Source of the DNA: Elmis aenea
Lineage: Eukaryota; Arthropoda; Insecta; Coleoptera; Elmidae
Length of the DNA stretch: 64,000 nt
Assembly (NCBI GenBank): GCA_947652605.1
Contig: OX393579.1
Span: 5,022,001-5,086,000 of the forward strand
Reading direction: 5' to 3'
Positions 4,201 through 42,915 of this stretch are shown here, piece by piece. The position numbers and the translations under genes are program-made. The notes beneath the pieces are model-generated. The model worked only from the letters and a program-made list of their open reading frames with translations, made no database searches and was not told the origin of the DNA. Position 1 is the stretch's first letter, and each line of letters opens with the position of its first letter.

Positions 4201-7200
4201 CTTTTATGCAATTAAAATATATTAAATCACTAAACTTATTAATGTCATACGCTTAGAAACCGCATAGCTTGTAGTTCGATGCAGTTTTTTGAATTTTTAT
4301 TACCGCTCTGAGCGAGAACCAAATAATATTGCGTAATTTATTTATTTTAGAGCCAGAAATGATTCTACTACAATAAAACTAAACAAAATCGAGTTATTTT
4401 GAGCTTAAATGTGGTTGTTTGATGATAAATGTTGGTTTAATGGGTGAAATTACGAATTTAAAGCTTGCCGATAGTGTAAATCGGCAAAAGGCTCGGTGAC
4501 AGCTAAACATACAAATAACAATCTTATAAGATTAGCTAGGCATTGGATTGTTGCATTACTACATGAATATTAATCACCTTTATCAATTGTAATACCTAAA
4601 TTAGCCTGAGTTTGCTTGTATTAAATGTTATTTTTAAAAAACAAGAAAAAATTCTGGTTTAACCCAACTTTCAATATCACAATTTTAATGAATTTTGAGT
4701 AAATACCTATTTAAATAAAATCATCACACCCAATAAAGGGTAAAATAAATATTTTTTTTTGTTATAGAACTCATTGCTTCATACATAATTTTGCAAAAAA
4801 ATTATTACCGCTGACAGATGGCGCCGGTATTACTTCATGGTCATATAAATATTTAGCTAAAAAACGAAACCTTAAAATATTCTGTTTATTTATTTTAAAT
4901 AGTATTAAATAAAGTAATTTATTAAAATGAAAAAAATTATTTAGACATCTAATTATGCTTATTTAAATTAAAATAGGCATAATTTTGCATGAAATTGTAC
5001 GTACAGCTTTATAAATACTTTTTTTAACAACGAAAATAAGATATTTTAGTTGGTTCAATGAAACATAATGAAGGTTTAATTTTGTAGACCGAACGAAGGG
5101 ATGTTTCAGGGCCGGATTAAGACTTTTAGAGACCCCTAGCCCTAAAAAGATTTAAAAAAATTACCTTCGAAATGCATTCGTTTGCTTTATATAACAATAT
5201 CTCGGACATTCTTTTAATGGCAATAGAAAATGGTATGATTGTGTGTTCAGCACACGTGCTATTCACATCGTTGTGGGAGCCCCCAGTGCACAACGTACAA
5301 AATACTGTATCACACGTCTCACAAAACAGCAACTCCTGGTTTATGTGAACAGAGCATTTAGGTATGACTTCCCGTCTCTGCCTGGACATCAAATCGAGCA
5401 ACTGATTTACTAGAAACGACGGCGGCAAAGCTTGTACACCACCTCTTGGGATAGTTATCAGCTCTCGACATATGGGACATCGAAACGTTCCTGTATCACG
5501 GGTCTGAGATGCAGCTATCCTCGTTAGACAATGCAGGCAAACGGTGTGTGAACATGGCAGCAATTTTGGCGTATGCTCGTTACCATCGTACATGCCTGGA
5601 AAAATTTTTTGTTCTAGTGAAACTTACAAAACACAGATAATATACAACAAACGTTTACATATCAAATTGGCAGTATTTTGATATGCATCGTCTCAAAAAC
5701 CCATGCAGTTATTTTTTATTTTGACTAAATAAATTTTCCATAATTTAAGAATAAAAACTGATACTTCCACCAGTCCATAAGCCATCTGCAACAACAAAAG
5801 TGTTGTTTTACTACCACTGCATATTTAAAACTCCTAAAAGTGCTTTGGAATGATGCCACCACCCAGTGGCGTAGCGAGGGTAAATGACGCCCGAGGCATT
5901 GTTTTTTTTGACCCCCCTTGATCCATATTTTTATTGTAGTTTATAAGTTTTAAGCAGAATAATGTTTTATTATTTATTTAAATACACTGTAATGCTAATG
6001 AGAACAAATTTTAATAGTATAATAGCATTTTAGTTTTCTGACTTTAAATAAAAGAAATAAGCGCAAATGTATTTTGTCTTCGCGCTCGGGGTATCAATAC
6101 CCCCCTTCGCTTCGCCACTGCCTCCAACCATTAATAATGAACCACTATTTTTATAATCCAAGAGCGTAGCTAACCCTAATAAAATATCCATCTTTACTGC
6201 TTTTGTTAGTGCACCCAATAGCATATGCCAGCGTTTTCCAAAATGGGTTCTGCGGAACCCCAGGTTTCCAAGGGACAATTCAGGGATTTCGCGTGTTTAT
6301 AGGTGTTGGTTTGTTTATTTTTACAGCATTTAAATCACTCCACTATAATAAAGCATTAACTTTTATCAATAAAACATTTTTTGTTCCAATTAATGTTTTA
6401 TCAAAATTGGGGAGGTCCATAAAATATAGGTATGGTTAGGGTTCCTCATTTTTTTTTAAATCGTGACAAATAAGTTTGGGAACCGCTGGCATAAGCAACG
6501 CGTTTTTTGAGTTCTACTGAAGCGAAATTTGGTTTTCGCTGCATTTAACAGTTGCAGTAACCTGAAGATATCCTTTGCAAAGAGGACAAAACGTCGCGTC
6601 AATAAAGCTTAAAAGACGCGAACTTCTACAGAGAATTCCTTAGAGCTATTATTTAAATACAATTGAAGAATGAGAGTATTTTCAGCCACTGAGCAACTGC
6701 TTAAATTTTTCCTACAGTGTATTTATAATACAATACAACGCTTACAAAAGGAACTGTGTTTTCGCAGCTTTCAAAGTTTTTTTTTTTAATTGCAGAATTT
6801 CAAGCTTCCAAAAAGTTCTGATAAAAAAATCAACAGGGATTGCACTTTTCAGCCCCCTGTGGAGGTGGGAGATGATTAAAAATATTACTATAGGAAACCT
6901 TTAAATAAGTATAAAACATCTTCCAGTTGTCATTCTCCTACACATCTCCATATTTGAGAAATAAAATAAAAACCTAATTTAGCCGCTCCCCTTTAGGGGG
7001 TGTAACTCCGATAGGAGACGTCTTATAAAAAAATATATATAAAAGCCCCCCCTTAATTTTCGATAAGGAATTACTTCCCGAAGTTTTTCGCAATATTTAA
7101 TTATCTGCCCTCTCATTTTCCCCCCAAAAAATTGACCTACTCCACTTCATAATAAACGGCCGTATAAGTATTGCCGTCTGCAATCTTTTCAAAATATTGA

Positions 7201-8202
7201 TAATATCACAAGATAAGAAAACAACAAAAAGCATCCACATTTTGGAACATATTTCGCCGTCGACATTTTGAGAATATCTAAATTTAGACCAACTGACGCG
7301 TTTAATGTACACACTTCGTTACTCGAGTTAATATTATGGGCCGTTAAAAATTGTAATAAAATTTTATTTAAGATTAAACTTCTATTTATAGTCGATTTTG
7401 GATTAATTGCGCTCGACGGCCGCTCGCAGATACGAAAATATGTTCGGTAAAATAAAAACCTGACAGCATTTTAATCTTTCGCGCATTATAAACGCGATTG
7501 TGAAGTGCGGCAGATATTTCCGTATTTAATTTTTTTATTGGGCTATTAAATAATTAACAGGACCTTTTGATACTCGGTTCAATAAACTACTAAAAAGTAT
7601 AAAAAAATCGGTATTGGAAAGCATTTACGTCGTCCGAAAAATACTGACAGTGATTAACAGCAATAAAAATAATTTAAATAAGGTTAATTGCAAATCAGTT
7701 ATATTATCTTTTATTGAAATGCAATACTAGTTTCAAGACTCTCATCTCTTCGTCAGTTACAGCCTTATTTATTTCTTTAAAAAAATATTTAAGCTTATTT
7801 ACATTAATAAATAAATCACCTAAAAAGAATCTTACAATATCGCCAATATATTTAAGTTCAAATAAATATCATTTATCTTTTTTTATAAAGGATATCAAGT
7901 AGAAACGCTAGACCTGTTACAAGTTTATCGTCTCTTCATTAGAGTTTTTTAAATTTATGACCCTAAATTCATTTATAAATGCATCACCTTCAAGGAGATA
8001 CTGCATGAAAATAATAATTACGCCAATATTGTTAGTGTAAGCGTATTACTTATTAGTTTATAAAAGCAAATATGGCGATTTTGGTGCATTCTAAAAATAA
8101 TAAATCCTTACATAAGCATGTTCCACAGGTAAGAAAGCTTTCGTTAAAGTCTTCATAATTGATGCTAACTGTTTCGACCAGGGTTGAGGTCATACTGGAC
8201 AT
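1276..8202 (-). CDS. TRIM-family E3 ubiquitin ligase (RING, B-box, coiled coil, filamin, NHL), 5' part
   Basis: Spliced minus-strand gene, incomplete at its 3' end. Coding exons in reading order: 8202-8112, 5595-5165, 2350-2135, 1993-1276. All junctions are GT-AG and phases agree (T|GC makes one Cys codon; the next two junctions fall between codons; the last visible donor leaves phase 1). The visible product is 485 residues. RING at about 26-75: the pair CGTC is in exon 1, and LPCSHTVCLHC plus CPIC are in exon 2. A B-box follows at about 100-145 (CSVH, CETC, CTLC). A charged coiled coil spans about 150-330, a filamin-type Ig domain about 350-445, and the first NHL strand (VYVLDTGNSRIKVLN) about 463-477. 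This order matches TRIM2/TRIM3 and nematode nhl-1 type proteins: cytoplasmic ubiquitin ligases whose NHL propeller binds substrates or RNA. The start is the first in-frame ATG after the acceptor at 8222; a second ATG lies three codons on. The exact orthologue is not settled, so no symbol is given. Confidence 0.9.
2579..4990. repeat. Three-copy tandem repeat, unit about 844 bp, in TRIM intron
   Basis: Copies start at about 2579, 3411 and 4255, each opening with AGAAACC followed by GATGCAGTTTTTTGAATTTT. Copies 1 and 2 are nearly identical over long stretches (for example 2821-3240 against 3665-4084). Copy 3 is shorter and more diverged after about 4490. Copies 2 and 3 share an insertion (CATAGCTTGTAGTTC) that copy 1 lacks. 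No ORF and no terminal inverted repeat were seen. The array fills most of the intron between exons 3 and 2. It could be a young satellite seed or an unequal-crossover triplication. Confidence 0.9.
5864..6120. mobile_element. MITE with CAGTGGCG termini
   Basis: The left end CAGTGGCGTAGCGAGGG (5864) is matched by the reverse complement of the right end (CAGTGGCGAAGCGAAGGG, ending at 6120). The element is 257 bp and AT-rich inside. Flanks CCACCACC and CCTCCAAC match at 6 of 8 positions and may be a decayed 8-bp duplication, which would suit a hAT-type element. It lies in the TRIM intron between exons 2 and 1. A fragment of the same end recurs near 62608. Confidence 0.7.
6553..6620 (+). repeat. 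Degenerate hammerhead-like motif, Penelope-type relic
   Basis: TTGCAGTAACCTGAAGA is followed by a short hairpin (TCCT ... AGGA) and then CAAAACGTCGCG. This has the order CUGANGA - stem II - GAAAC - GUC of a hammerhead core, with the conserved GAAAC changed to AAAAC. A related arrangement is at about 8372. Active folding is doubtful; read as a decayed terminal repeat. Confidence 0.3.
6796..7098. repeat. Dispersed 300-bp repeat, copy 1
   Basis: Closely matches 14778-15079 in the same orientation: CAAAAAGTTCTGATAAAAAA, CAGCCCCCTGTG, GAGATGATT, CCGCTCCCCTTTAGGGGG, GGAGACGTCT and CCTTAATTTTCGATAA all recur in order. No ORF of note. It contains short self-complementary stretches (CCCCTTTAGGGG). 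Probably a SINE or non-autonomous element of unknown family. Confidence 0.75.
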
Positions 8203-8315: not shown

Positions 8316-8425
8316 TTCTGGACGTTTCGTTTATCTTCAAGGTACTACAACAGTAACATAAAACAATTGCAGCATTCTGAAGATGCACCTTGCAATGCGT
8401 ACGAAACGTCGGTTCTAAAACCTTA
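8316..8425. repeat. Inverted pair of hammerhead-like relics
   Basis: Plus strand at about 8372-8412: GCAGCATTCTGAAGATGCA, then CGAAACGTCGG, the layout CUGANGA - hairpin - GAAAC - GUC. About 45 bp to the left the reverse complement of its end occurs (GACGTTTCG with ATCTTCA). Two unpaired bases separate the hairpin from GAAAC, so the core is imperfect. Similar inverted paired motifs bound the Penelope-like element at 38721-40067. Confidence 0.35.
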
Positions 8426-11300: not shown

Positions 11301-11310
11301 ATTTCTCTTT

Positions 11311-11596
11311 TTTTTTGAAATATTGAGCATAATTTAAAAGCAAAATGGTACTTATGATATATCATTGTGAAGAGAAATTGATTTAGAATGTGATTCTGTG
11401 AAAATATACAGGGTGTTGTATTTAAAAAACAAAAGTTGGATATTTTTCCGAAAAACAGGTAGGCCTTGAAACAAAATTTTTAGCACCATTTTGTAGACCA
11501 GCTTTTGTTTAATAAGTTTCTTATTTAACATTTTTTGGTAACTTTAATATTTTAGCAGATATAAGCTGGACAATGAAAAATCAGCCACACTGTATA
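11311..11596 (+). mobile_element. Single arm of foldback element family (as at 37951-38714)
   Basis: About 285 bp that closely match 38431-38714 and, inverted, 37951-38230. Landmarks in order: GAAATATTGAGCATAATTT, GGTACTTATGATATATCATT, ATACAGGGTGTTGTATTT, GTTGGATATTTTTCCGAAAA, GCTGGACAATGAAAAATCAG. It ends near CCACACTGTATA. No coding frame. Confidence 0.75.
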
Positions 11597-11719
11597 TCTC
11601 AGTAAACATCCACTTCAGGAAAAAATATTTTGATTAAAAGTTGTTTGGTACTTGGCTTTCCACCACAAGACAAAATTTAATTTTTTTTCCCGAATAACAA
11701 AAGCGCAATGAAAAACAAT

Positions 11720-22999: not shown

Positions 23000-25255
23000 G
23001 ATTAAAACAAGGTTGTTTTATATCCCTGTTTGTTTGTTAATAAAGGTTGGAACGAATACCAACATTAAAAAAACAATGATTTTTTATAACATCATGCGTA
23101 AAACGACTTTGGACTGAATTAAAATACATTTTATTTAAACCCAAAGTCGACCATGCTAAAATCATTAACAACATTTTTATGCACATCAAAATGAAAAACA
23201 TTTAATACCTCAAAATAACATAAAAGTTACTTATGCCACTTTAAAATAAACGGTTCAATATACCATTTTATCCTCGCCCTCTGCCATCTCCATTTTTCTC
23301 TACAAAAAATTTGCATTGTATCACTACAGACTAACTAGGTATGTGCTGCTAACAGAGTGACTTTTGGTACAAATTTTTAATAATAAACTATGAAACGTGT
23401 TTTTATCAGTATTGGAGTAGTGTTATCCTAAAGAGCAAAGTAACCCAAATTTATCTTAATTATTGTTCTCTGAAATATAAAAATGAAAAATCAGGTTCCC
23501 AGGAGCAACTACAATAAGCCAATTTAAATTTAAAGTAATGATACAATTTTGATGGTTAGGTAAATGCGCCTTTTACAAAGCACGCCTTCAAAAGTTAGCA
23601 AATAACATGAAAATTAATTATTTAGAATCATAACATTAATTTAAAATATAACTATCCTCACCATTATCCAACACACACGACCATACCAATTCCAATCAAT
23701 CACTTTTATGCCATAAAACCAGCGAAAATTCAATCCCTCACAAACAGTAAATAATGAAAATTATATCTGCTTGTAAATAATAAAACAGCTCGAGTGGTTT
23801 CAATAAATGAGGCCAATTAAACAGTGATAAGCAAAGAAATACAGAGGCACATTGCTACACTCACCTATTTCGATAACAACTACACAAGTTTTTACTTTCC
23901 CCGCAAGAAGTACAAATAAGGCATTGTTACCAATGAAAAAACACGTCAAAGTTTATTAAACACGTCTTGACACGATTTTTTTTTGAAGATGTGTTTGCTT
24001 TAGTCTCTCCATTGTTGCGAAAATATCTAATCAAAACGCTGTTAATCGGTTCATCAACCGATATAATGGCGTTCTTAAAATTGTGTATATTTCAAAGCGT
24101 TTTGAGAACTAGAAGTAGGTTTTTGATTTCACACAAGAGTTATTTTTAACTTAAAAAAATTCCTCGAATCGCCGCTCATGCAGTTAAGTAAAATTATTGT
24201 TTTCAAGAATTTCGTTGGTACTAAAAATAAATGCTTTTTAGCGAATACTGAAAAAATACGAGCCAGTATAGTCTTCCACATGGTTTGATTTGAAAAACTG
24301 TAAGATAAATCTCTTAGCTGGAAACTTTAATTATCAGTTTCTGATAGCAACTAGAGTCGGGTATAGGTTTTAAAACTTATGGTTCTGCACTTAAATATTT
24401 GCTTACACAACGCGGTTTTAACAATGTAAATATATTCCAGAGTTTAGCGATCAATATTTGCAGAAAAGGCGCCTATTTTAAGAAGAAATAAAATCTAATT
24501 ACCTTATAGCATGCGTCGCTGTAATTACTGTTGTATTTTGTTTTCAAATATTTGCTTAACACACCTACGTTTATATGGGTGCAGTTTTCAGTGCAATAAT
24601 TTTAACAAGAACCATATCCGGTTGCTTTTTTACATATCTGTTTGTAATAGTAAATAATGAAACATGCATACAAAAATTCTATTTGCCTAGCATCTTAAAA
24701 ATCTGATAAATTATATACTTGAGACAAAAAGTTCATTTAAAATTTATATTATACGATCTTCAGGCACTTATAAAATAACACAAGACTTCACTTACACGTC
24801 ACAACTAATGGTCAAAACCTAACCTTTTTTTAAAAATATATGTTTATTATGCTGTGAAGCACCGTTACTAGTAAGGTACACAGTTCAACGATTCCATATT
24901 TATTTCAAGTCGATCTGCTCAAGTGTGTTGAAGAATTCAAAAGATGTAAATTTGTTTTTAAGTTCGTTTCAAGTGGTCTGACGAGTACCTTTTAATTTTT
25001 AAGACAAACATTGATTCAGCTTTTGACCATCGACTGAAACATCAACCGAACGATGCTAACTGGTCCCAACTAAACTTGAATGCAGGATTAAGTTTAAAAA
25101 TATTCATATATTTTTTTTACGTTTTAAAGCTTAATATGATTATTGATAAGTTTTTTTAAAGCAATATTTCTAAACCAGGAATTGAATAAAATCAATATGA
25201 AAATAAATACAGAAAAACTAAAACTATGATCGTTATAACAGAGAACAAACGGCAT
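23000..25255. other. No recognised gene
   Basis: AT-rich with no recognisable coding exon. Around 23175-23260 there is an 85-bp segment (TTTTTATGCACA, CATAAAAGT, ACTTATGCC) that is loosely repeated at 43690-43775. Confidence 0.45.
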
Positions 25256-36392: not shown

Positions 36393-36962
36393 TTGCAAGT
36401 TGAGCTGAAAAAAACACGAGTGCACGAGCGATTTTTTCTGAGTGAAGATTTGTCAAAATTTATAGATTATTTGCAATGCAAGAGTTATATTTTATCAGAA
36501 AATTTCTTTCACCTAACCTACCTGATCAATTAAATGTATGTTATGTCAAATTTTAGAATTTTACAAGTACTGTTAGAGTGGTGCGTCAGGGGTGTGGTTT
36601 AATCTATATTAAAGTAACGCTACTGGTCGCCGAAATTCGTCAAAAAATTATCAAGACCTAAATAATTAATTCCCTCTCCAAATTTATATTTTCGACCAAT
36701 CACAAACTCAGATTTCTTAGAAACGACCAATAAACGCATGAAAATCTGTTAATTGCGAAAAAGATATCATCAGTATGATTATGTTTACTGGTCGTTTCTA
36801 GGAAATCTGAGTTTGTTATTGGTCATTATTGGGACAATCAACATCTGACAGGGGAATTTAAAATTATTACCGTGTAATAATGCTCCTATTGGTAGTCTCT
36901 TCTAGAAGATTTAACACTAGTGATTGGTTGAAAACGCAAATTTGACAAGTGAAGGAAATTTT
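36393..36962 (+). mobile_element. Unclassified repeat element, copy 1
   Basis: About 570 bp that recur inverted at 41764-42915 (there split by a mariner). Landmarks: GCAAGTTGAGCTGAAAAAAA, TAGATTATTTGCAATGCA, AGTGGTGCGTCAGGGGTGTG, TATATTAAAGTAACGCTAC, ACAAACTCAGATTTC. A roughly 40-bp internal inverted repeat (CCAATCACAAACTCAGATTT at 36697, inverted near 36790-36828) could form a hairpin. No coding capacity found. Confidence 0.75.
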
Positions 36963-37684
36963 CTTTGCAACAGTTTTCTGTGTTCCAAAAATCGCCCAAG
37001 TTCTATAAATTTTAAACACGCAAACAGAGGCGGCAACAATAGTTGGTATTTCTTTATCTAAAGATTGCAAACCGATCAATATTTGCCAACAGACTTATTC
37101 GTCGATCGACACAAAGATAAAAAAATCTTTATTTGTTCGGGAAAACTCCTTTGTGTACTAATCTCAGAGCAATGAAATAAAATACATCACACTTTTCGTT
37201 TGAATGCATACAACCAGGAAGTACTTTGAAGGTGAAATGATAATTAATTTACGTCTTCAAACAATTTAAAGGTCAATGCCTGACTACACGCTATTTAAAA
37301 ATATGTGCGTATAACTTACGCGTATGATTTATCACAACGCAAGCAACCGATTTATTTGTGACTTTTTTAAAATAATAAATCAACAATAAGCCTTCAGATT
37401 TCGCAAAAAAAAATTTTTTTGCATGGCGCTTTTAAAATTGACGCAGCCTACTTAGTTTTTGGCATACGCATTGACGCCATAATGGATTTTTTTTGGGTCA
37501 GTTGACAAGTTTTGCGGTAAATACAATTATCGCCAACTCACAGCATGAAAAATCAATATGGTGTCTGTTATTCATTAAACAAATTCTACTGTTGTGCATA
37601 ATAAAGTTATTCGTCTTTCAATTCTTTCAGTTTTTTCAGGATATTTCGTAGCTGGGCACATTTTCACTTGAGTTTCTTACACGG

Positions 37685-37752
37685 CCGGTTTACCAGAAGG
37701 CGAATCTCGGCAATTGCCTAGAGGCGCCAAGATACGGAGGCGCCAGCCCTAC
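37685..37752. mobile_element. Fragment with GGCGCC repeats, transposon end
   Basis: GGCCGGTTTACCAG, AATTGCCTAGAGGCGCC and CGGAGGCGCCAGCCC resemble the terminus of a DNA transposon. A related reversed segment (GGGGCGCCTAAAT ... GCACTGGCCCTGG) is at 40319-40381. Pairing as one element is not proven, because other elements lie between. Confidence 0.35.
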
Positions 37753-37950
37753 TCATAAAAAATACGATATGATGAATTTGAAAAATATTAGCAGATGCGG
37801 GGAACATCTAACAAAATTAAATATGAGGGCAAACGTTTTACAATTTTAAATCCTTAAATATTTTCCAAATTTTGTATTATTGGCAATGTTGTAAAAACGT
37901 AAATGATTAAAATTTTAACCTAAAATGCCTAAAGTGACAATGTCAAAATT

Positions 37951-38714
37951 TACAGTGTGGCTGGTTTTTCATCGTCCAGCTTATATCTGCTGAAATATTA
38001 ATGTTACCAAAAAAAGTTAAATGAGAAACTTATTAAACAAAAGCTGGTCTACAAAATGGTGCTAAAAATTTTGTTCCATAGCCTACCAGTTTTTCGGAAA
38101 AATATCCAACTTTTGTTTTTTAAATAGAACACCCTGTATATTTTCACAGAATCACATTCTAAATCAATTTCTCTTCACAATGATATTATCATAAGTACCA
38201 TTTTGCTTTTAAATTATGCTCAATATTTCAAAAAAGGAGAATTATTATAGTCGGATGGGGAAACAGCACAGCATATCAACTTTTTCATTATTTGTATAGT
38301 ACATATTTCTTAATTATAATTACACTTATTTCTGTCTGATTTGACAAGTGTTTGCTAATGTAAACAAATTTAACAGGTATTTTGCAATAAACAAAACAAT
38401 ATCACAGCCGACTTTAATAATTCTTTTTTTGAAATATTGTGCATAATTTAAAAGCAAAATGGTACTTATGATATATCATTGTAAAGAGAAATTGATTTAG
38501 AATGTGATTCTGTCAAAATATACAGGGTGTTCTATTTAAAAAAGAAAAGTTGGATATTTTTCCGAAAAACTGGTAGGCTATGGAATAAAATTTTTAGCAC
38601 AATTTTGTAGACCAGCTTTTGTTTAATAAGTTTCTCATTAAACTTTTTTTGGTAACTTTAATATTTCAGCAGATATGTATAAGCTGGACAATGAAAAATC
38701 AGCCACCCTGTATA
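37951..38714. mobile_element. Foldback element with 280-bp inverted arms
   Basis: The left arm 37951-38230 is the reverse complement of the right arm 38431-38714 (ends TACAGTGTGGCTG and CAGCCACCCTGTATA). The centre of about 200 bp is unrelated to the arms. A single right-type arm is at 11311-11596. No transposase frame; non-autonomous. Confidence 0.85.
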
Positions 38715-38786
38715 CAGAGTTTGAAGGGATGTATACAATAAAACTCTGGTTTTTACAGGACGTATTCTTTAGCCAAGTATTTATTG

Positions 38787-38836
38787 GTAAACTTACATGT
38801 TTCGATTAGGACTTCCTAATCTTCATCAGAGTTACT
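38787..38836 (-). ncRNA. Hammerhead-ribozyme-like motif in left arm
   Basis: Minus strand: GTAACT, CTGATGA, A, GATTAGG-AAGT-CCTAATC (a perfect 7-bp stem II with 4-nt loop), GAAAC, AT, GTA, AGTTTAC. The core elements CUGANGA and GAAA are in order; ACATGT is self-complementary as in minimal type I hammerheads with very short stem III; GTAACT pairs with AGTTTAC as stem I with one bulge. The extra A between CTGATGA and stem II departs from the consensus, so cleavage activity is uncertain. Confidence 0.6.
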
Positions 38837-38955
38837 GAAATTTAATAATTGATAATAATAATTTTTTTAACAAATTTAACAATTGCATTATAAAAAAAGG
38901 TTGGTCTATAAAACTACTTACGTTATCCACATAATTTCTTGGTTAAAATAAACAC

Positions 38956-39255
38956 AATAGTGATTTAAAAAAACTCAAAGACATTTTAAAGACCAAAAAT
39001 AAGTCTAGTGTTCAGGCTAATACTAGTTTAACAGAACATGTACTAAAAACCGACCATGATTTCAATTTTAATAAAATAAAAATGATCTATCACGAAAAGA
39101 ATTTATTTAAAAGACTAATAGCAGAAAGTATTTTTATAAACGTAAACAATAATGCTTGTAATGACAGAACTGACATAGACAATATTTTTCAAAAAACATA
39201 CAAATTATTAGTAAATAAATGTCATCAACAAAATTTACTATTTCCTAACAATTAG
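38956..39255 (+). pseudogene. Penelope-like element protein, C-terminal (GIY-YIG region) fragment
   Basis: A 99-codon open stretch with no internal stop, closed by TAG at 39253-39255. It begins NSDLKKLKD and continues TSLTEHVLKTDHDFNF, KMIYHEKNLFKRLIAES and DNIFQKTYKLL. The 'x-L-x-EH-x3-T-x-H-x-F-x-F ... R-L-I-x-E' pattern is typical of the sequence after the GIY-YIG core in Penelope-like polyproteins. The catalytic GIY-YIG residues and the reverse transcriptase are absent, since the copy is cut immediately upstream by the inverted arm. Confidence 0.75.
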
Positions 39256-39953
39256 CTAAAATATTTCTATATATCAATTTAAAAAATATTAATAGAATTT
39301 TTGTCGCTTACTGTTAAGTTTTTTAAAATATTGTTTGTTTTTAACAAAAAATAATTATTGTTCATTAATTGTCATATTTTATCATTATCATTGTTCAATT
39401 ATTATTGTTCATTATGTTAATTATTGTAAACTATTATTATATACTCATTATTTGTTAATTAAAACTTACAATTGTAAATTTCAAAAAAGATGTTGCCTAT
39501 TAGTGACATCTGGTTAGTAAGGATTGTTATTACTAACAATTTTGTCAGTTTCCTACAAAAATCGTTGCTTAGTGGTTTTTTAAGTATGATATTTTTCCTG
39601 GTTTCACAGTCATTCTGTGCTGTTAAGTTTGTTGTAAAAATGTGCACATTGTTTTCTGTAATCGTCTTTTTAAAAAATTGTTAGTTATAAGTTAAAAATA
39701 CCAAATAATTCAAAAAAAAATTTAATATCTGTTGTTTAATGTTATATTTTACTTTGAGTAAGTTTGTGCCTGCGGATTTTTATCACATTTTAAAAGGAAA
39801 AAAATTGTTTGACCACGTTGTTTTCTAATACAACTGTTTATTTTAACCAAGAAATTATGTGGATAACGTAAGTAGTTTTATAGACCAACCTTTTTTTATA
39901 ATGCAATTGTTAAATTTGTTAAAAAAATTATTATTATCAATTATTAAATTTCA

Positions 39954-40002
39954 GTAACTCTGATGAAGATTAGGAAGTCCTAATTGAAACATGTAAGTTT
40001 AC
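39954..40002 (+). ncRNA. Hammerhead-ribozyme-like motif in right arm
   Basis: Plus strand, same layout as in the left arm: GTAACT, CTGATGA (39960-39966), stem II GATTAGG/CCTAATT with loop AAGT, GAAAC (39986-39990), AT, GTA (predicted cleavage after 39995), AGTTTAC. It differs from the other copy by one T for C at the base of stem II, leaving a G-U pair. Confidence 0.6.
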
Positions 40003-40411
40003 CAATAAATACTTGGCTAAAGAATACGTCCTGTAAAAACCAGAGTTTTATGTATACATCCCTTCAATCATCATTAACGGACGCAATTCCAATATTTAAT
40101 ATATACAGAGTGTAATTTGTCACCCTTTAATGTATAGATAATAAAAGTAAACAAATGTATTAGTGTTCATTAATACAAAAATATTTAAAAGTTCATACTG
40201 ATATTACTAATTATTATAAAAATAAATGTTTTTAGTGATCTACCCGCGTTAAAACTCTTTCAGTTGGTGTTCGACTTTGGGGTAAATTCCCAAAAACATA
40301 TTACACGATAATGTATAGGGGCGCCTAAATTTTCTTTGCCTAAAGGCGTCAGATCTCAGATACTCTTGCACTGGCCCTGGATTCCCACTAAGCACATACA
40401 AATATGGTAAC

Positions 40412-41026
40412 AGGACAATCACCCCCTGGACAATCACCCCCCGGACAAATAACCCCCCGGACAAATAACCCCCCGTGTAAAAAATCCCCCAGACAATTAA
40501 CCCCTCGTGCAGAAAAAACAACGACTAACTTGAAATAACAGTAGATTATAATTGCCGCAATGTAAAGTGATAAAGTTGCAAAAAAAAAAGAAATAAGGCA
40601 GATTAACAATTTAATCTTCTTCGGGTGTTACCTTTGAACGCACAATTTTTCACTGTTATGGCCATCATGCAGCGATTTGGAATGATGTTAACATCATAGG
40701 ATTAGGATTAAAATTAGTAAACTTGTAAACTTTATGGTTTATTTAAATAAACTTACATTTGTAAAGTATTTTACAGGAAAATAAATATTGTTAATAATGT
40801 ATTAAAATGTTATTCTTTAATTTTTTTATTTGCAACTTTATCACTTTACATTGCGGGAATTATAATTTACCGATATTTCAAGTTAGTCGTTGTTTTTTTT
40901 TGCATGGGGGTTAATTGTCTGGGGTTTTTTTACACGGGGGGTTATTTGTACGGGGGTTATTTGTACGGGGGGTTATTGTCCGGGGGTTATTGTCCGGGGG
41001 GTGATTGTCCAGGGGGTGATTGTCCT
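40412..41026. mobile_element. TIR element with C-run/G-run subterminal repeats
   Basis: The left arm (40412-40600) opens AGGACAATCACCCCC and repeats units such as GGACAAATAACCCCCC at 16-18-bp spacing; the right arm (about 40810-41026) is the reverse complement, with G-runs at 40907-41015, ending GGGGGTGATTGTCCT. Inside the arms both sides share CAACGACTAACTTGAAATA and TGTAAAGTGATAAAGTTGCA. About 200 bp of unrelated AT-rich DNA lies in the centre. Open frames over the arms are repeat artefacts. Confidence 0.8.
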
Positions 41027-41763
41027 AGAACCACAAATATAAACGCATTTCTTTGCATATTTAACCAACTTTTGATCTTCAACAGTATCCAGAATTCTCA
41101 TGTATTTATGAAGAATCATACACTCTGTAAAGTATTTTTTTCGATCAAATTCAACATCGTAACATTACTGGCCTATATGCTCTTAAACGTGGCCTATTTT
41201 TCACATTTGCGCCGCTTACTCGATCACACAAACAAAGACCACTCTTACATAATCAAATTAATAACGCATGCACTGCCACATTATTAATTATACACACAAA
41301 AACATGACTCAATTTCTACGCATCAACCGTGCTTCTAAACAAACTACACACTTAGCGTCAATTTAAATGAGAAGATATTACGTGCTAATTAATTTACGCC
41401 TTTTTCCGGTCTTTATGTTTTCATTTGGCCGAACTCGTCGATTCTGATTTTGGCTTGGTCTTGAAGTGTGGCTCAAGTTTTTCGCGATAAAATTGCGCGG
41501 GGATCATTAACCTGTCGAACGTCGAACCATACAAAACACGGCTTAAAAACAATCGCGCCGGACTGTCACGGCGGATTCCTTAGAGCCATTCTGCCGAAGC
41601 AATTTTGATTCTTTTCAATACAATGAAATATTATATTCAATTATGTTTGTGAGTCAGCTATTAAAGATCGACACACTTTTTAGTTAGTGATTGTTATCCC
41701 GCGGACAATTCTTGGTTGCTAGATTGATTCAAGCGTGTTCTGAGATAAAGGAAAATAAGGTTG

Positions 41764-42915
41764 AAAATATCCTTCACCTGTCAAATTTGCGTTTTCAACC
41801 AATCACTAATCTTAAATGTTCTAGAGACTACCAATAGGAGCACTATTGCACGGTAATAATTTTACATTCCCCTGTCAGATGTTGATCCTCATCTCAAATT
41901 TGCTTTTTCGACCAATAACAAACTCAGATTTCCTAGAAACGACCAATAAACATATTCATACACTGATAATATCCTTTTCGCAATTAACAGATTTTCATAC
42001 GTTTATTGGCCGTTTCTAAGAAATCTGAGTTTGTGATTGGTCGAAAATATAAATTTGGAGAGGGAATTAAATATTAGGTTGATGCATAATTATCCGCCGT
42101 TTTTGAAAAGTTATAATATAACATAAATTATAATAAAATATTGGAAATTTTCTTGTATACATCCCTTCAATAAATTATAATGTAACATAATCAAAAACGA
42201 AAACAAACTCAAAGCAGTAGGTACAGTTATCATTTGGGGAAGTAGTCACCATCAACGTCGATTACTGCTTCCCATATGCTTGGAAAACGGTCGATTCCGC
42301 GGGCGAAGAAGCACTGGTTTTTGGAGGCAATGCACGATTTGACATCCTCTACCAAATCCGAAGATCGACCCTTTCCTGACTTGTCATCTAAGCTTTAAAG
42401 CGAACAAACCGCTCTCGGCATGACCTCTCGCTAATCGTTCCTTCGCGAAATAACTCAGCGGTTTTCCATCCTTCCTCGAAGTGATACAGCATAATGTGGC
42501 TTATATGTGTATGATTTTCGATGTGCATTTTAATTTCTCAACCCTTTTAAAGAACTATATTATGACAAATGTCAATTAAACGACAAATTGAATAACAAAA
42601 CTTCGCGGAAAAAAACGGCAGATAATTATGCATCAACCTAATATTTTGGTCTTGATAAATATTTTGACGCATTTCGGCGACCGGTAGCGTTACTTTAATA
42701 TAGATTAAACCACACCCCTGACGCACCACTCTGACAGTACTCGTAAAATTTGACATAACATACATTTAATTTGGCAGGTAGGTTAGGTGCAGGAAATTTT
42801 CTGACAAAATATAACTCGTGCATTGCAAATAATCTATAATTTTTGACACATCTTCACTCATGCAAGTTGAATCAGAAAAAAATCACTTGTGTTTTTTTCA
42901 GCTCAACTTGCATTC
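41764..42915 (-). mobile_element. Unclassified repeat element, copy 2 (inverted, split by mariner)
   Basis: Reverse complement of 36393-36962, interrupted at 42072 by a 568-bp mariner and resuming at 42642 (GTCTTGATAAATATTTTGAC). The right edge holds an additional local hairpin (GCAAGTTGA ... TCAACTTGC at 42863-42911). Confidence 0.75.
42074..42641 (-). mobile_element. Mariner element, internal deletion derivative
   Basis: Inverted ends TTAGGTTGATGCATAATTAT and its reverse complement at 42622-42641, flanked by a TA duplication (42072-42073 and 42642-42643). On the minus strand a transposase N-terminus (HIMLYHFEEGWKTAELF, SERSCRERFVRF) runs straight into a C-terminus (CIASKNQCFFARGID, then WEAVIDVDGDYF), so the whole DD34D catalytic centre is deleted. 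The TIRs look intact, so it could be moved only by a related full-length element. Confidence 0.9.

What the first reader, a model, noticed from the sequence alone, without database searches (positions are those of the whole stretch)
38787..40002. Paired hammerhead-ribozyme-like cores in the inverted arms of a Penelope-like element
Both arms carry CTGATGA, a perfect or near-perfect 7-bp stem II with AAGT loop, GAAAC, AT, GTA, with complementary stem I strands on the outside. The palindromic ACATGT gives a two-base-pair stem III, the form thought to work as a dimer. Hammerheads are known in Penelope-like elements; here they sit head to head, so both strands of the locus would encode a potential self-cleaving RNA. 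The extra A before stem II is the main doubt.
Basis: partly seen in the sequence, partly recalled or inferred. Interest (0 to 1): 0.75.

Follow-up and report, generated by a model that had tools for sequence, protein, structure and literature searches.

The report
Dimer-type hammerhead ribozymes in Penelope repeats
A small RNA shape thought to cut itself sits in both mirror-image ends of a broken jumping gene; it is very likely a real, already known kind of element, here with one odd extra base that turns out to recur in its likely relatives nearby.

Summary
The motif is real. Two arms (38721-38954 minus, 39835-40067 plus; 99.1% alike) each carry a type I hammerhead core: CUGAUGA, an extra A, a 7-bp stem II (G·U at its base in the right arm), GAA, palindromic ACAUGU, site A, 4-bp stem I. 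No Rfam hammerhead matches at E<=10. Yet the full descriptor is expected 0.0005 times per window and is met three times: both arms and an unreported copy at 7756 (minus) with other stems and palindrome (ACUAGU) but the same extra A. Two decayed cores also fit best with one unpaired base there, so it looks like a lineage trait; a viroid hammerhead with an extra A at that place cleaves. A 5'-truncated body between inverted pseudo-LTRs is a published Penelope layout, and minimal, possibly dimeric hammerheads in Penelope-like elements are published too. Correction: in a transcript across the locus the other arm is antisense and should lock the ribozyme in a duplex, so cleavage would need another sense copy. 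The element's identity rests on layout and recall; no protein match was found. Other genomic copies and activity are untested.

The parts
38721..38954 (-). left inverted arm (pseudo-LTR, minus orientation)
   Evidence: 99.1% reverse complement of 39835-40067; 217 nt with 1 mismatch
38790..38833 (-). left hammerhead-like motif; C3 at 38829, extra A 38822, stem II 38821-38815 / 38810-38804 (perfect), palindrome 38800-38795, predicted cleavage after A 38794
   Evidence: sequence and scans
38947..39255 (+). open frame of 102 aa, cut off at its 5' end by the left arm; reads like the C-terminal end of a Penelope endonuclease (recalled resemblance, not shown by any search)
   Evidence: no Pfam match above its cut-off, no protein, viral-contig or PDB match
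39835..40067 (+). right arm (pseudo-LTR, plus orientation)
39956..39999 (+). right hammerhead-like motif; C3 at 39960, extra A 39967, stem II 39968-39974 / 39979-39985 (G·U at the base), palindrome 39989-39994, predicted cleavage after A 39995
   Evidence: sequence and scans
7720..7761 (-). second, divergent hammerhead-like motif: CTGACGA, extra A 7749, stem II 5 bp, palindrome ACTAGT 7731-7726, predicted cleavage after A 7725, stem I 5 bp
   Evidence: its region aligns colinearly with the arm
6562..6595 (+). decayed hammerhead core of another Penelope type (CTGAAGA, U, stem II, then CAAAACGTC)
8377..8410 (+). decayed hammerhead core of another Penelope type (CTGAAGA, U, damaged stem II, GAAACGTC), facing a further remnant at 8340-8321 (minus)

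Best explanation
The locus is a 5'-truncated Penelope-like element whose inverted pseudo-LTRs each carry a minimal type I hammerhead ribozyme. Stem III is only a 6-nt palindrome, so two copies must pair through it (6 bp) to form an active double hammerhead that cuts after GUA. In an intact element with tandem (direct) pseudo-LTRs, or between two transcripts, this would trim or monomerise element RNA. In this inverted copy the second arm is antisense and should sequester the motif, so the locus itself is probably silent as a ribozyme unless transcription starts inside an arm. The extra nucleotide between A9 and stem II is an inherited trait of these ribozymes here. Shown: sequence, pairing potential, statistics, layout, second copy. 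Inferred: the element's identity, dimerisation, cleavage, sequestration (predicted fold only), role.
For: Descriptor met 3 times (2 independent) against 0.0005 expected. Second copy at 7756 with the same extra A, different stems and a different palindrome, in a region that aligns colinearly with the arm (score 66, 1 of 300 shuffles as good, best of 278 other window chunks 61; with the motif left out 12 of 1000 shuffles as good). Two decayed cores ending in AAACGTC also fit best with one unpaired base at that place. Published: Penelope elements with 218-bp pLTRs and 5'-truncated copies between inverted 212-bp pLTRs, head-to-head most frequent (PMC3846280); minimal type I hammerheads in pLTRs of Penelope-like elements that may act as dimers (PMC7761336); extra A in a working viroid hammerhead (PMC3705267). 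Control: of 32 viral-contig stretches with the same primary-sequence pattern, several of them near-identical to each other, 0 have stem II>=5.
Against: No Rfam hammerhead hit at E<=10. A model built from the two arms ranks 7756 only fourth (16.3 bits, E 0.066), below a hit at 24921 that lacks the core (18.4 bits, E 0.014). The double-hammerhead pairing is not the lowest-energy dimer in any of the three motifs (right -17.4 against -26.6, left -22.4 against -31.0, 7756 -12.4 against -19.4 kcal/mol). The protein fragment has no match in anything searched, so the element's identity rests on layout, the other remnants and recall. No transcript or cleavage data; no other genomic copies could be fetched.
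Confidence: 0.75

Rival explanations
1. A fossil: hammerhead-derived motifs that were active in an ancestor but no longer cut here, kept only because the copy is young. (Overlaps with the best explanation on origin, differs on activity.)
For: The element is truncated; the right arm has a G·U at the base of stem II; the extra base lowers activity in the viroid (PMC3705267) and other core insertions lower it strongly (PMC3088659); other cores in the window are decayed.
Against: The left arm is perfect in core and stem II; the core bases are intact in three motifs, one of them strongly diverged.
Confidence: 0.4
2. The inverted arms matter as a source of double-stranded RNA: the transcript folds into a hairpin of about 220 bp that feeds small-RNA silencing, and the ribozyme plays no part here. 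(Can hold together with the best explanation.)
For: 217 of 217 right-arm bases pair with the left arm in the predicted fold; inverted Penelope copies in introns have been proposed as hairpin sources (PMC1431729).
Against: Does not explain the hammerhead core in a diverged copy.
Confidence: 0.3
3. The arms are terminal inverted repeats of a non-autonomous DNA transposon, and the motif arose by chance.
For: Other inverted-repeat elements surround it; the protein fragment has no match.
Against: Chance expectation 0.0005 per window against 3 hits; no target duplication seen by eye at the arm ends; pLTR-like arm length and layout.
Confidence: 0.07
4. The strand after the core is kept as a splice donor (GTAAGT at 39993-39998 and its mirror) or as a protein-binding hairpin rather than as a ribozyme.
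For: GUAAGU spans the predicted cleavage site in both arms; introns are known in these elements (recalled; a title on introns in retroelements is cited in PMC12910113, and an intron in one Penelope frame is described in PMC3846280).
Against: The 7756 copy keeps the hammerhead core but not GTAAGT.
Confidence: 0.1

Closest known systems
Minimal (small) type I hammerhead ribozymes of Penelope-like elements (Cervera and De la Pena 2014; Lunse et al. 2017; neither held; known to me here only as cited and described in other papers)
   Same: Type I order of strands, near-absent stem III, place in the pseudo-LTR, possible dimer action
   Different: An extra A between A9 and stem II and the palindromes ACAUGU / ACUAGU; I could not check whether the published set already includes this form
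Hammerhead of the Poseidon element of Anolis carolinensis (PMC11167929, passages)
   Different: There it overlaps the start of the reading frame and showed cleavage only with the element's protein present; here no long frame starts in the motif (my reading)
Plus hammerhead of chrysanthemum chlorotic mottle viroid (PMC3705267, passages)
   Same: Extra A between A9 and G10.1
   Different: Viroid RNA; not a retroelement
Penelope families of Adineta vaga (PMC3846280, passages)
   Same: Pseudo-LTRs of about 190-220 bp; 5'-truncated copies bounded by inverted pseudo-LTRs, head to head most frequent; some copies there have no target duplication, and none was seen here by eye
   Different: The word hammerhead does not occur in that paper's main text, so no ribozyme comparison is possible from it

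Membership tests
Type I hammerhead ribozyme | CUGANGA ... GAAA core with A15.1-U16.1 and a site base other than G | tested here: met
   all three motifs
Type I hammerhead ribozyme | stem II after A9, within the one or two inserted nucleotides tolerated in known hammerheads | tested here: met
   exactly one unpaired A in all three motifs, so not strictly adjacent; tolerance from PMC10085705 and PMC3705267
Type I hammerhead ribozyme | open stem I enclosing the motif | tested here: met
   4 bp in the arms, 5 bp at 7756
Type I hammerhead ribozyme | self-cleavage at the predicted site | not testable with these tools
   needs in vitro transcription
Rfam 15 hammerhead families as modelled (I do not file it under these) | score at or near the curated cut-off | tested here: not met
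   none at gathering score in the window; no hammerhead family at E<=10 on the locus or either arm
Penelope-associated minimal dimeric hammerhead | near-absent stem III whose strand is palindromic, so that two copies can pair | tested here: met
   ACATGT in both arms, ACTAGT at 7756
Penelope-associated minimal dimeric hammerhead | lies in a pseudo-LTR of a Penelope-like element | tested here: inconclusive
   pLTR-like arms, but the element's identity is not proven by a protein match
Penelope-like element | reverse transcriptase plus GIY-YIG endonuclease frame | tested here: inconclusive
   5'-truncated; only a 102-aa frame without any match; resemblance to the endonuclease C-terminus is recalled
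Penelope-like element | pseudo-LTRs of about 200 bp, often in inverted head-to-head layout with 5' truncation | tested here: met
   one search compared with PMC3846280
Animal retrozyme (non-LTR) | short tandem repeats of about 150-450 bp, each with a hammerhead | tested here: not met
   the arms are inverted around a body with a reading frame; definition from PMC7229834

The most novel reading that the evidence does not exclude
A Penelope lineage whose ribozyme has become an obligate double hammerhead with a fixed extra base at position 10 and a changing but always palindromic stem III, so that only tandem copies or pairs of transcripts of the same lineage cut, while inverted copies silence it by antisense pairing: a built-in test of copy arrangement.
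Probability: 0.15. Interest if true: 0.55.

Novelty: new member of a known kind. Interest (0 to 1): 0.33.

Why it matters
A 2020 review calls the role of hammerheads in Penelope-like elements a mystery (PMC7761336, passages). A copy with two clean arms, a diverged relative with a different palindrome, and a recurring extra base gives a compact set for testing whether these ribozymes work only as dimers and whether the extra base tunes them.

Tried and rejected
Rfam search: no hammerhead (the three weak matches at E<=10 were two snoRNA families and one lncRNA family). Covariance model from the two arms: does not by itself make 7756 significant. Protein identity of the 102-aa frame: no hit above a Pfam cut-off (one sub-threshold match at E 0.24), none in the protein collection (1 candidate; 254 candidates with a padded query that scored all but the last residues of the frame), none in viral contigs (24 stretches matched a peptide pattern, none confirmed), none among PDB sequences; structure prediction without an alignment was too poor to use (pLDDT 54). 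Viral contigs: the exact motif is absent; a looser pattern gave 32 stretches, none with stem II>=5. MAFFT misaligned the divergent motifs, so no pair-counting was done on them. Considered and dropped: chance; a retrozyme (arms are inverted, not tandem).

Rows dropped before the extra-base count: the first list (cores with up to one mismatch before a GAAAC...GT-type string) has 16 rows and its second list (AAACGTC) 14 sites. I took from them the two arms, 7756, and the four places that have both AAACGTC and a CTGAAGA-like core (6562, 8377, 47092 minus, 8340 minus); the rest, among them 1752 and 53555, were set aside by eye as not hammerhead-like and not examined further. Of the seven taken, 47092 and 8340 were too decayed to judge.

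Full report
Observation. The region holds two arms that are reverse complements: 38738-38954 and 39835-40051, 217 nt with one mismatch, extending with a small indel to 38721-38954 (234 nt) and 39835-40067 (233 nt) at 99.1%. Read outward from the middle, each arm contains AACT CTGATGA A GATTAGG AAGT CCTAAT(C/T) GAA ACATGT A AGTT. In hammerhead numbering (recalled) this is stem I, C3-A9, one extra A, stem II (7 bp), G12-A14, A15.1 ... U16.1, A17, stem I. The left arm is perfect; the right arm has T at 39985, a G·U at the base of stem II. The 6-nt palindrome cannot close on itself as two base pairs (2-nt loop) but pairs with a second copy over 6 bp, the double-hammerhead form.

Chance. The two arms are one duplication, so they count once. 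A first loose scan found only the two arms; a slightly looser one (any base at position 7) found a third place, 7756 on the minus strand, at an expectation of about 0.14 per window (28 hits with stem II>=4 in 25.6 Mb simulated, both strands). A scan that also asks for a palindromic stem III, a non-G site base and stem I listed five places at up to two core mismatches; three have none, both arms and 7756, and the other two (27874 minus, 18138 minus) have weak stems; the same scan of 19.2 Mb of simulated sequence gave 1, 5 and 84 places at 0, 1 and 2 mismatches. In a larger simulation, 3.53 Gb counted over both strands, 5174 places have core + GAAA + stem II>=4, 543 of them also the palindrome, 15 of them also stem I>=4; per window 0.19, 0.020 and 0.0005. 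The window has three at every level. The descriptor was tightened after I had seen the arms, so for the arms the last figure is partly post hoc; 7756 was first found by core and stem II alone, and its palindrome, site base and stem I came as independent additions.

The second copy. 7756 (minus) reads UGUAA CUGACGA A GAGAU GAGA GUCUU GAA ACUAGU A UUGCA. Stems I and II and the palindrome differ from the arms, while the core and the extra A are the same: the pattern that a structure under selection would give, though from two independent motifs only. Its surroundings align colinearly with the arm from the arm's third base (score 66; shuffles 43.4 +/- 6.6, 1 of 300 as good; best of 278 other window chunks 61); with the motif left out the support is weaker (score 52; 12 of 1000 as good). 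Against: a two-sequence covariance model of the arms ranks it only fourth (E 0.066), below a hit at 24921 without the core (E 0.014), and its own single-strand fold is no better than shuffles (z -0.1).

The extra base. I looked at seven cores: both arms, 7756, and four with AAACGTC and a CTGAAGA-like core (what was set aside is told under Tried and rejected). That such strings are typical of Penelope hammerheads is recalled. Trying 0, 1 or 2 unpaired bases after A9, five of the seven have a recognisable stem II and each fits best with exactly one: A in three, U in two (6562 and 8377, both damaged). Two (47092 minus, 8340 minus) are too decayed to judge. In print, the plus hammerhead of chrysanthemum chlorotic mottle viroid has an extra A at this very place with a moderate loss of rate, while C or G there is strongly harmful (PMC3705267, passages); [quoted passage not shown] On the other side, natural insertions at other core positions (after A6, or near C3) lowered activity strongly (PMC3088659, passages). 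On balance the extra A is not a good reason to reject the motif, but it may make it slow.

Rfam. No family reaches its gathering score anywhere in the window; at E<=10 no hammerhead family matches the locus or either arm. I give it limited weight, because these minimal forms lack stem III and carry an insertion, but I had no published Penelope hammerhead in hand as a positive control.

What the element is. A frame of 102 aa (38947-39255) is cut at its 5' end by the left arm. Its last part reads to me like the C-terminal end of a Penelope GIY-YIG endonuclease, but this is recall: Pfam, two protein searches, viral contigs and PDB sequences gave nothing, and the unaided structure model was unusable. 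The layout does fit: Adineta vaga Penelope elements have 218-bp pseudo-LTRs, a 5'-truncated copy there is flanked by inverted 212-bp pseudo-LTRs without a target duplication, and head to head is called the most frequently observed arrangement (PMC3846280, passages). I saw no target duplication at the arm ends here (by eye).

How it would work. Minimal type I hammerheads without a usable stem III are reported from pseudo-LTRs of Penelope-like elements, may self-cleave as dimers in tandem, and have no known role (PMC7761336, passages; PMC6155905, passages). The Anolis element's hammerhead showed no cleavage without the element's protein, its mutants still inserted in vitro, and no reads beginning or ending at its site were detected; the same paper recalls earlier self-cleavage of a Penelope hammerhead in 3-25 mM magnesium (PMC11167929, passages). 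By analogy the motif here would cut after GUA when two sense copies meet. At this locus they do not meet in one transcript: the other arm is antisense, and the predicted fold of 38721-40067 pairs 217 of 217 right-arm bases with the left arm. So the head-to-head layout more likely silences the ribozyme than doubles it. The double-hammerhead pairing of two copies is also not the best dimer by energy rules (right -17.4 against -26.6, left -22.4 against -31.0, 7756 -12.4 against -19.4 kcal/mol); those rules leave out tertiary contacts and allow slow strand exchange.

Control on specificity. The primary-sequence pattern CTGANGAAG-N10-30-GAAACATGTA occurs in 32 stretches of the viral contig collection, many of them near-identical to each other; 0 of 32 have stem II of 5 or more pairs. 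The sequence words alone are therefore not enough; the pairing is what sets the window's motifs apart.

Limits. The decisive genomic comparison, other copies in the same assembly, could not be made: 17 identical requests did not complete. The two key papers on Penelope hammerheads are not held, so whether the extra-base form is already described there is open; nine literature searches (listings) and passages of 13 papers did not show it for Penelope-like elements. No paper was read whole.

Verdict. Real, well above chance, most likely a known kind of ribozyme in a known kind of element, in a copy whose layout should keep it quiet. The added value is the recurring extra base and the changed palindrome in a second copy.

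Noticed in passing
window 7720-7761 (-): Divergent hammerhead-like motif with the same extra A and a different palindrome; probably a decayed pseudo-LTR of a related element.
   Followed up: yes
window 6562-6595 (+), 8377-8410 (+), 8340-8321 (-), 47092-47070 (-): Decayed cores ending in AAACGTC, as I recall them from other Penelope-like elements; those at 8377 and 8340 lie head to head.
   Followed up: partly
window 7933-7957 (-): TAAATTTAAAAAACTCTAATGAAGA resembles the start of the arm's motif (21 of 25), about 200 nt before the 7756 copy; possibly a decayed tandem pseudo-LTR.
   Followed up: no
window 39993-39998 (+) and mirror 38796-38791 (-): A splice-donor-like GTAAGT spans the predicted cleavage site in both arms.
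   Followed up: no
window 36394-42912: The element lies inside a much larger inverted-repeat structure (arms about 36394-36963 and 41763-42912, 85-88% alike) that also holds other inverted repeats and an apparent mariner-like insertion (about 42069-42646, 36-nt inverted ends; mariner is my reading).
   Followed up: no
window 42148-42170: A 22-of-23 match to the outer end of the arm, with no longer match to the element there.
   Followed up: no
window 37951-38712 and 11310-11597: A repeat with about 310-nt inverted arms (94%) directly left of the element; a related copy of one arm lies at 11310-11597.
   Followed up: no
window 5126-5623 (-): A frame with RING and B-box-like cysteine patterns, probably an exon of a TRIM-like host gene (my reading, not searched), suggesting an animal genome.
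   Followed up: no
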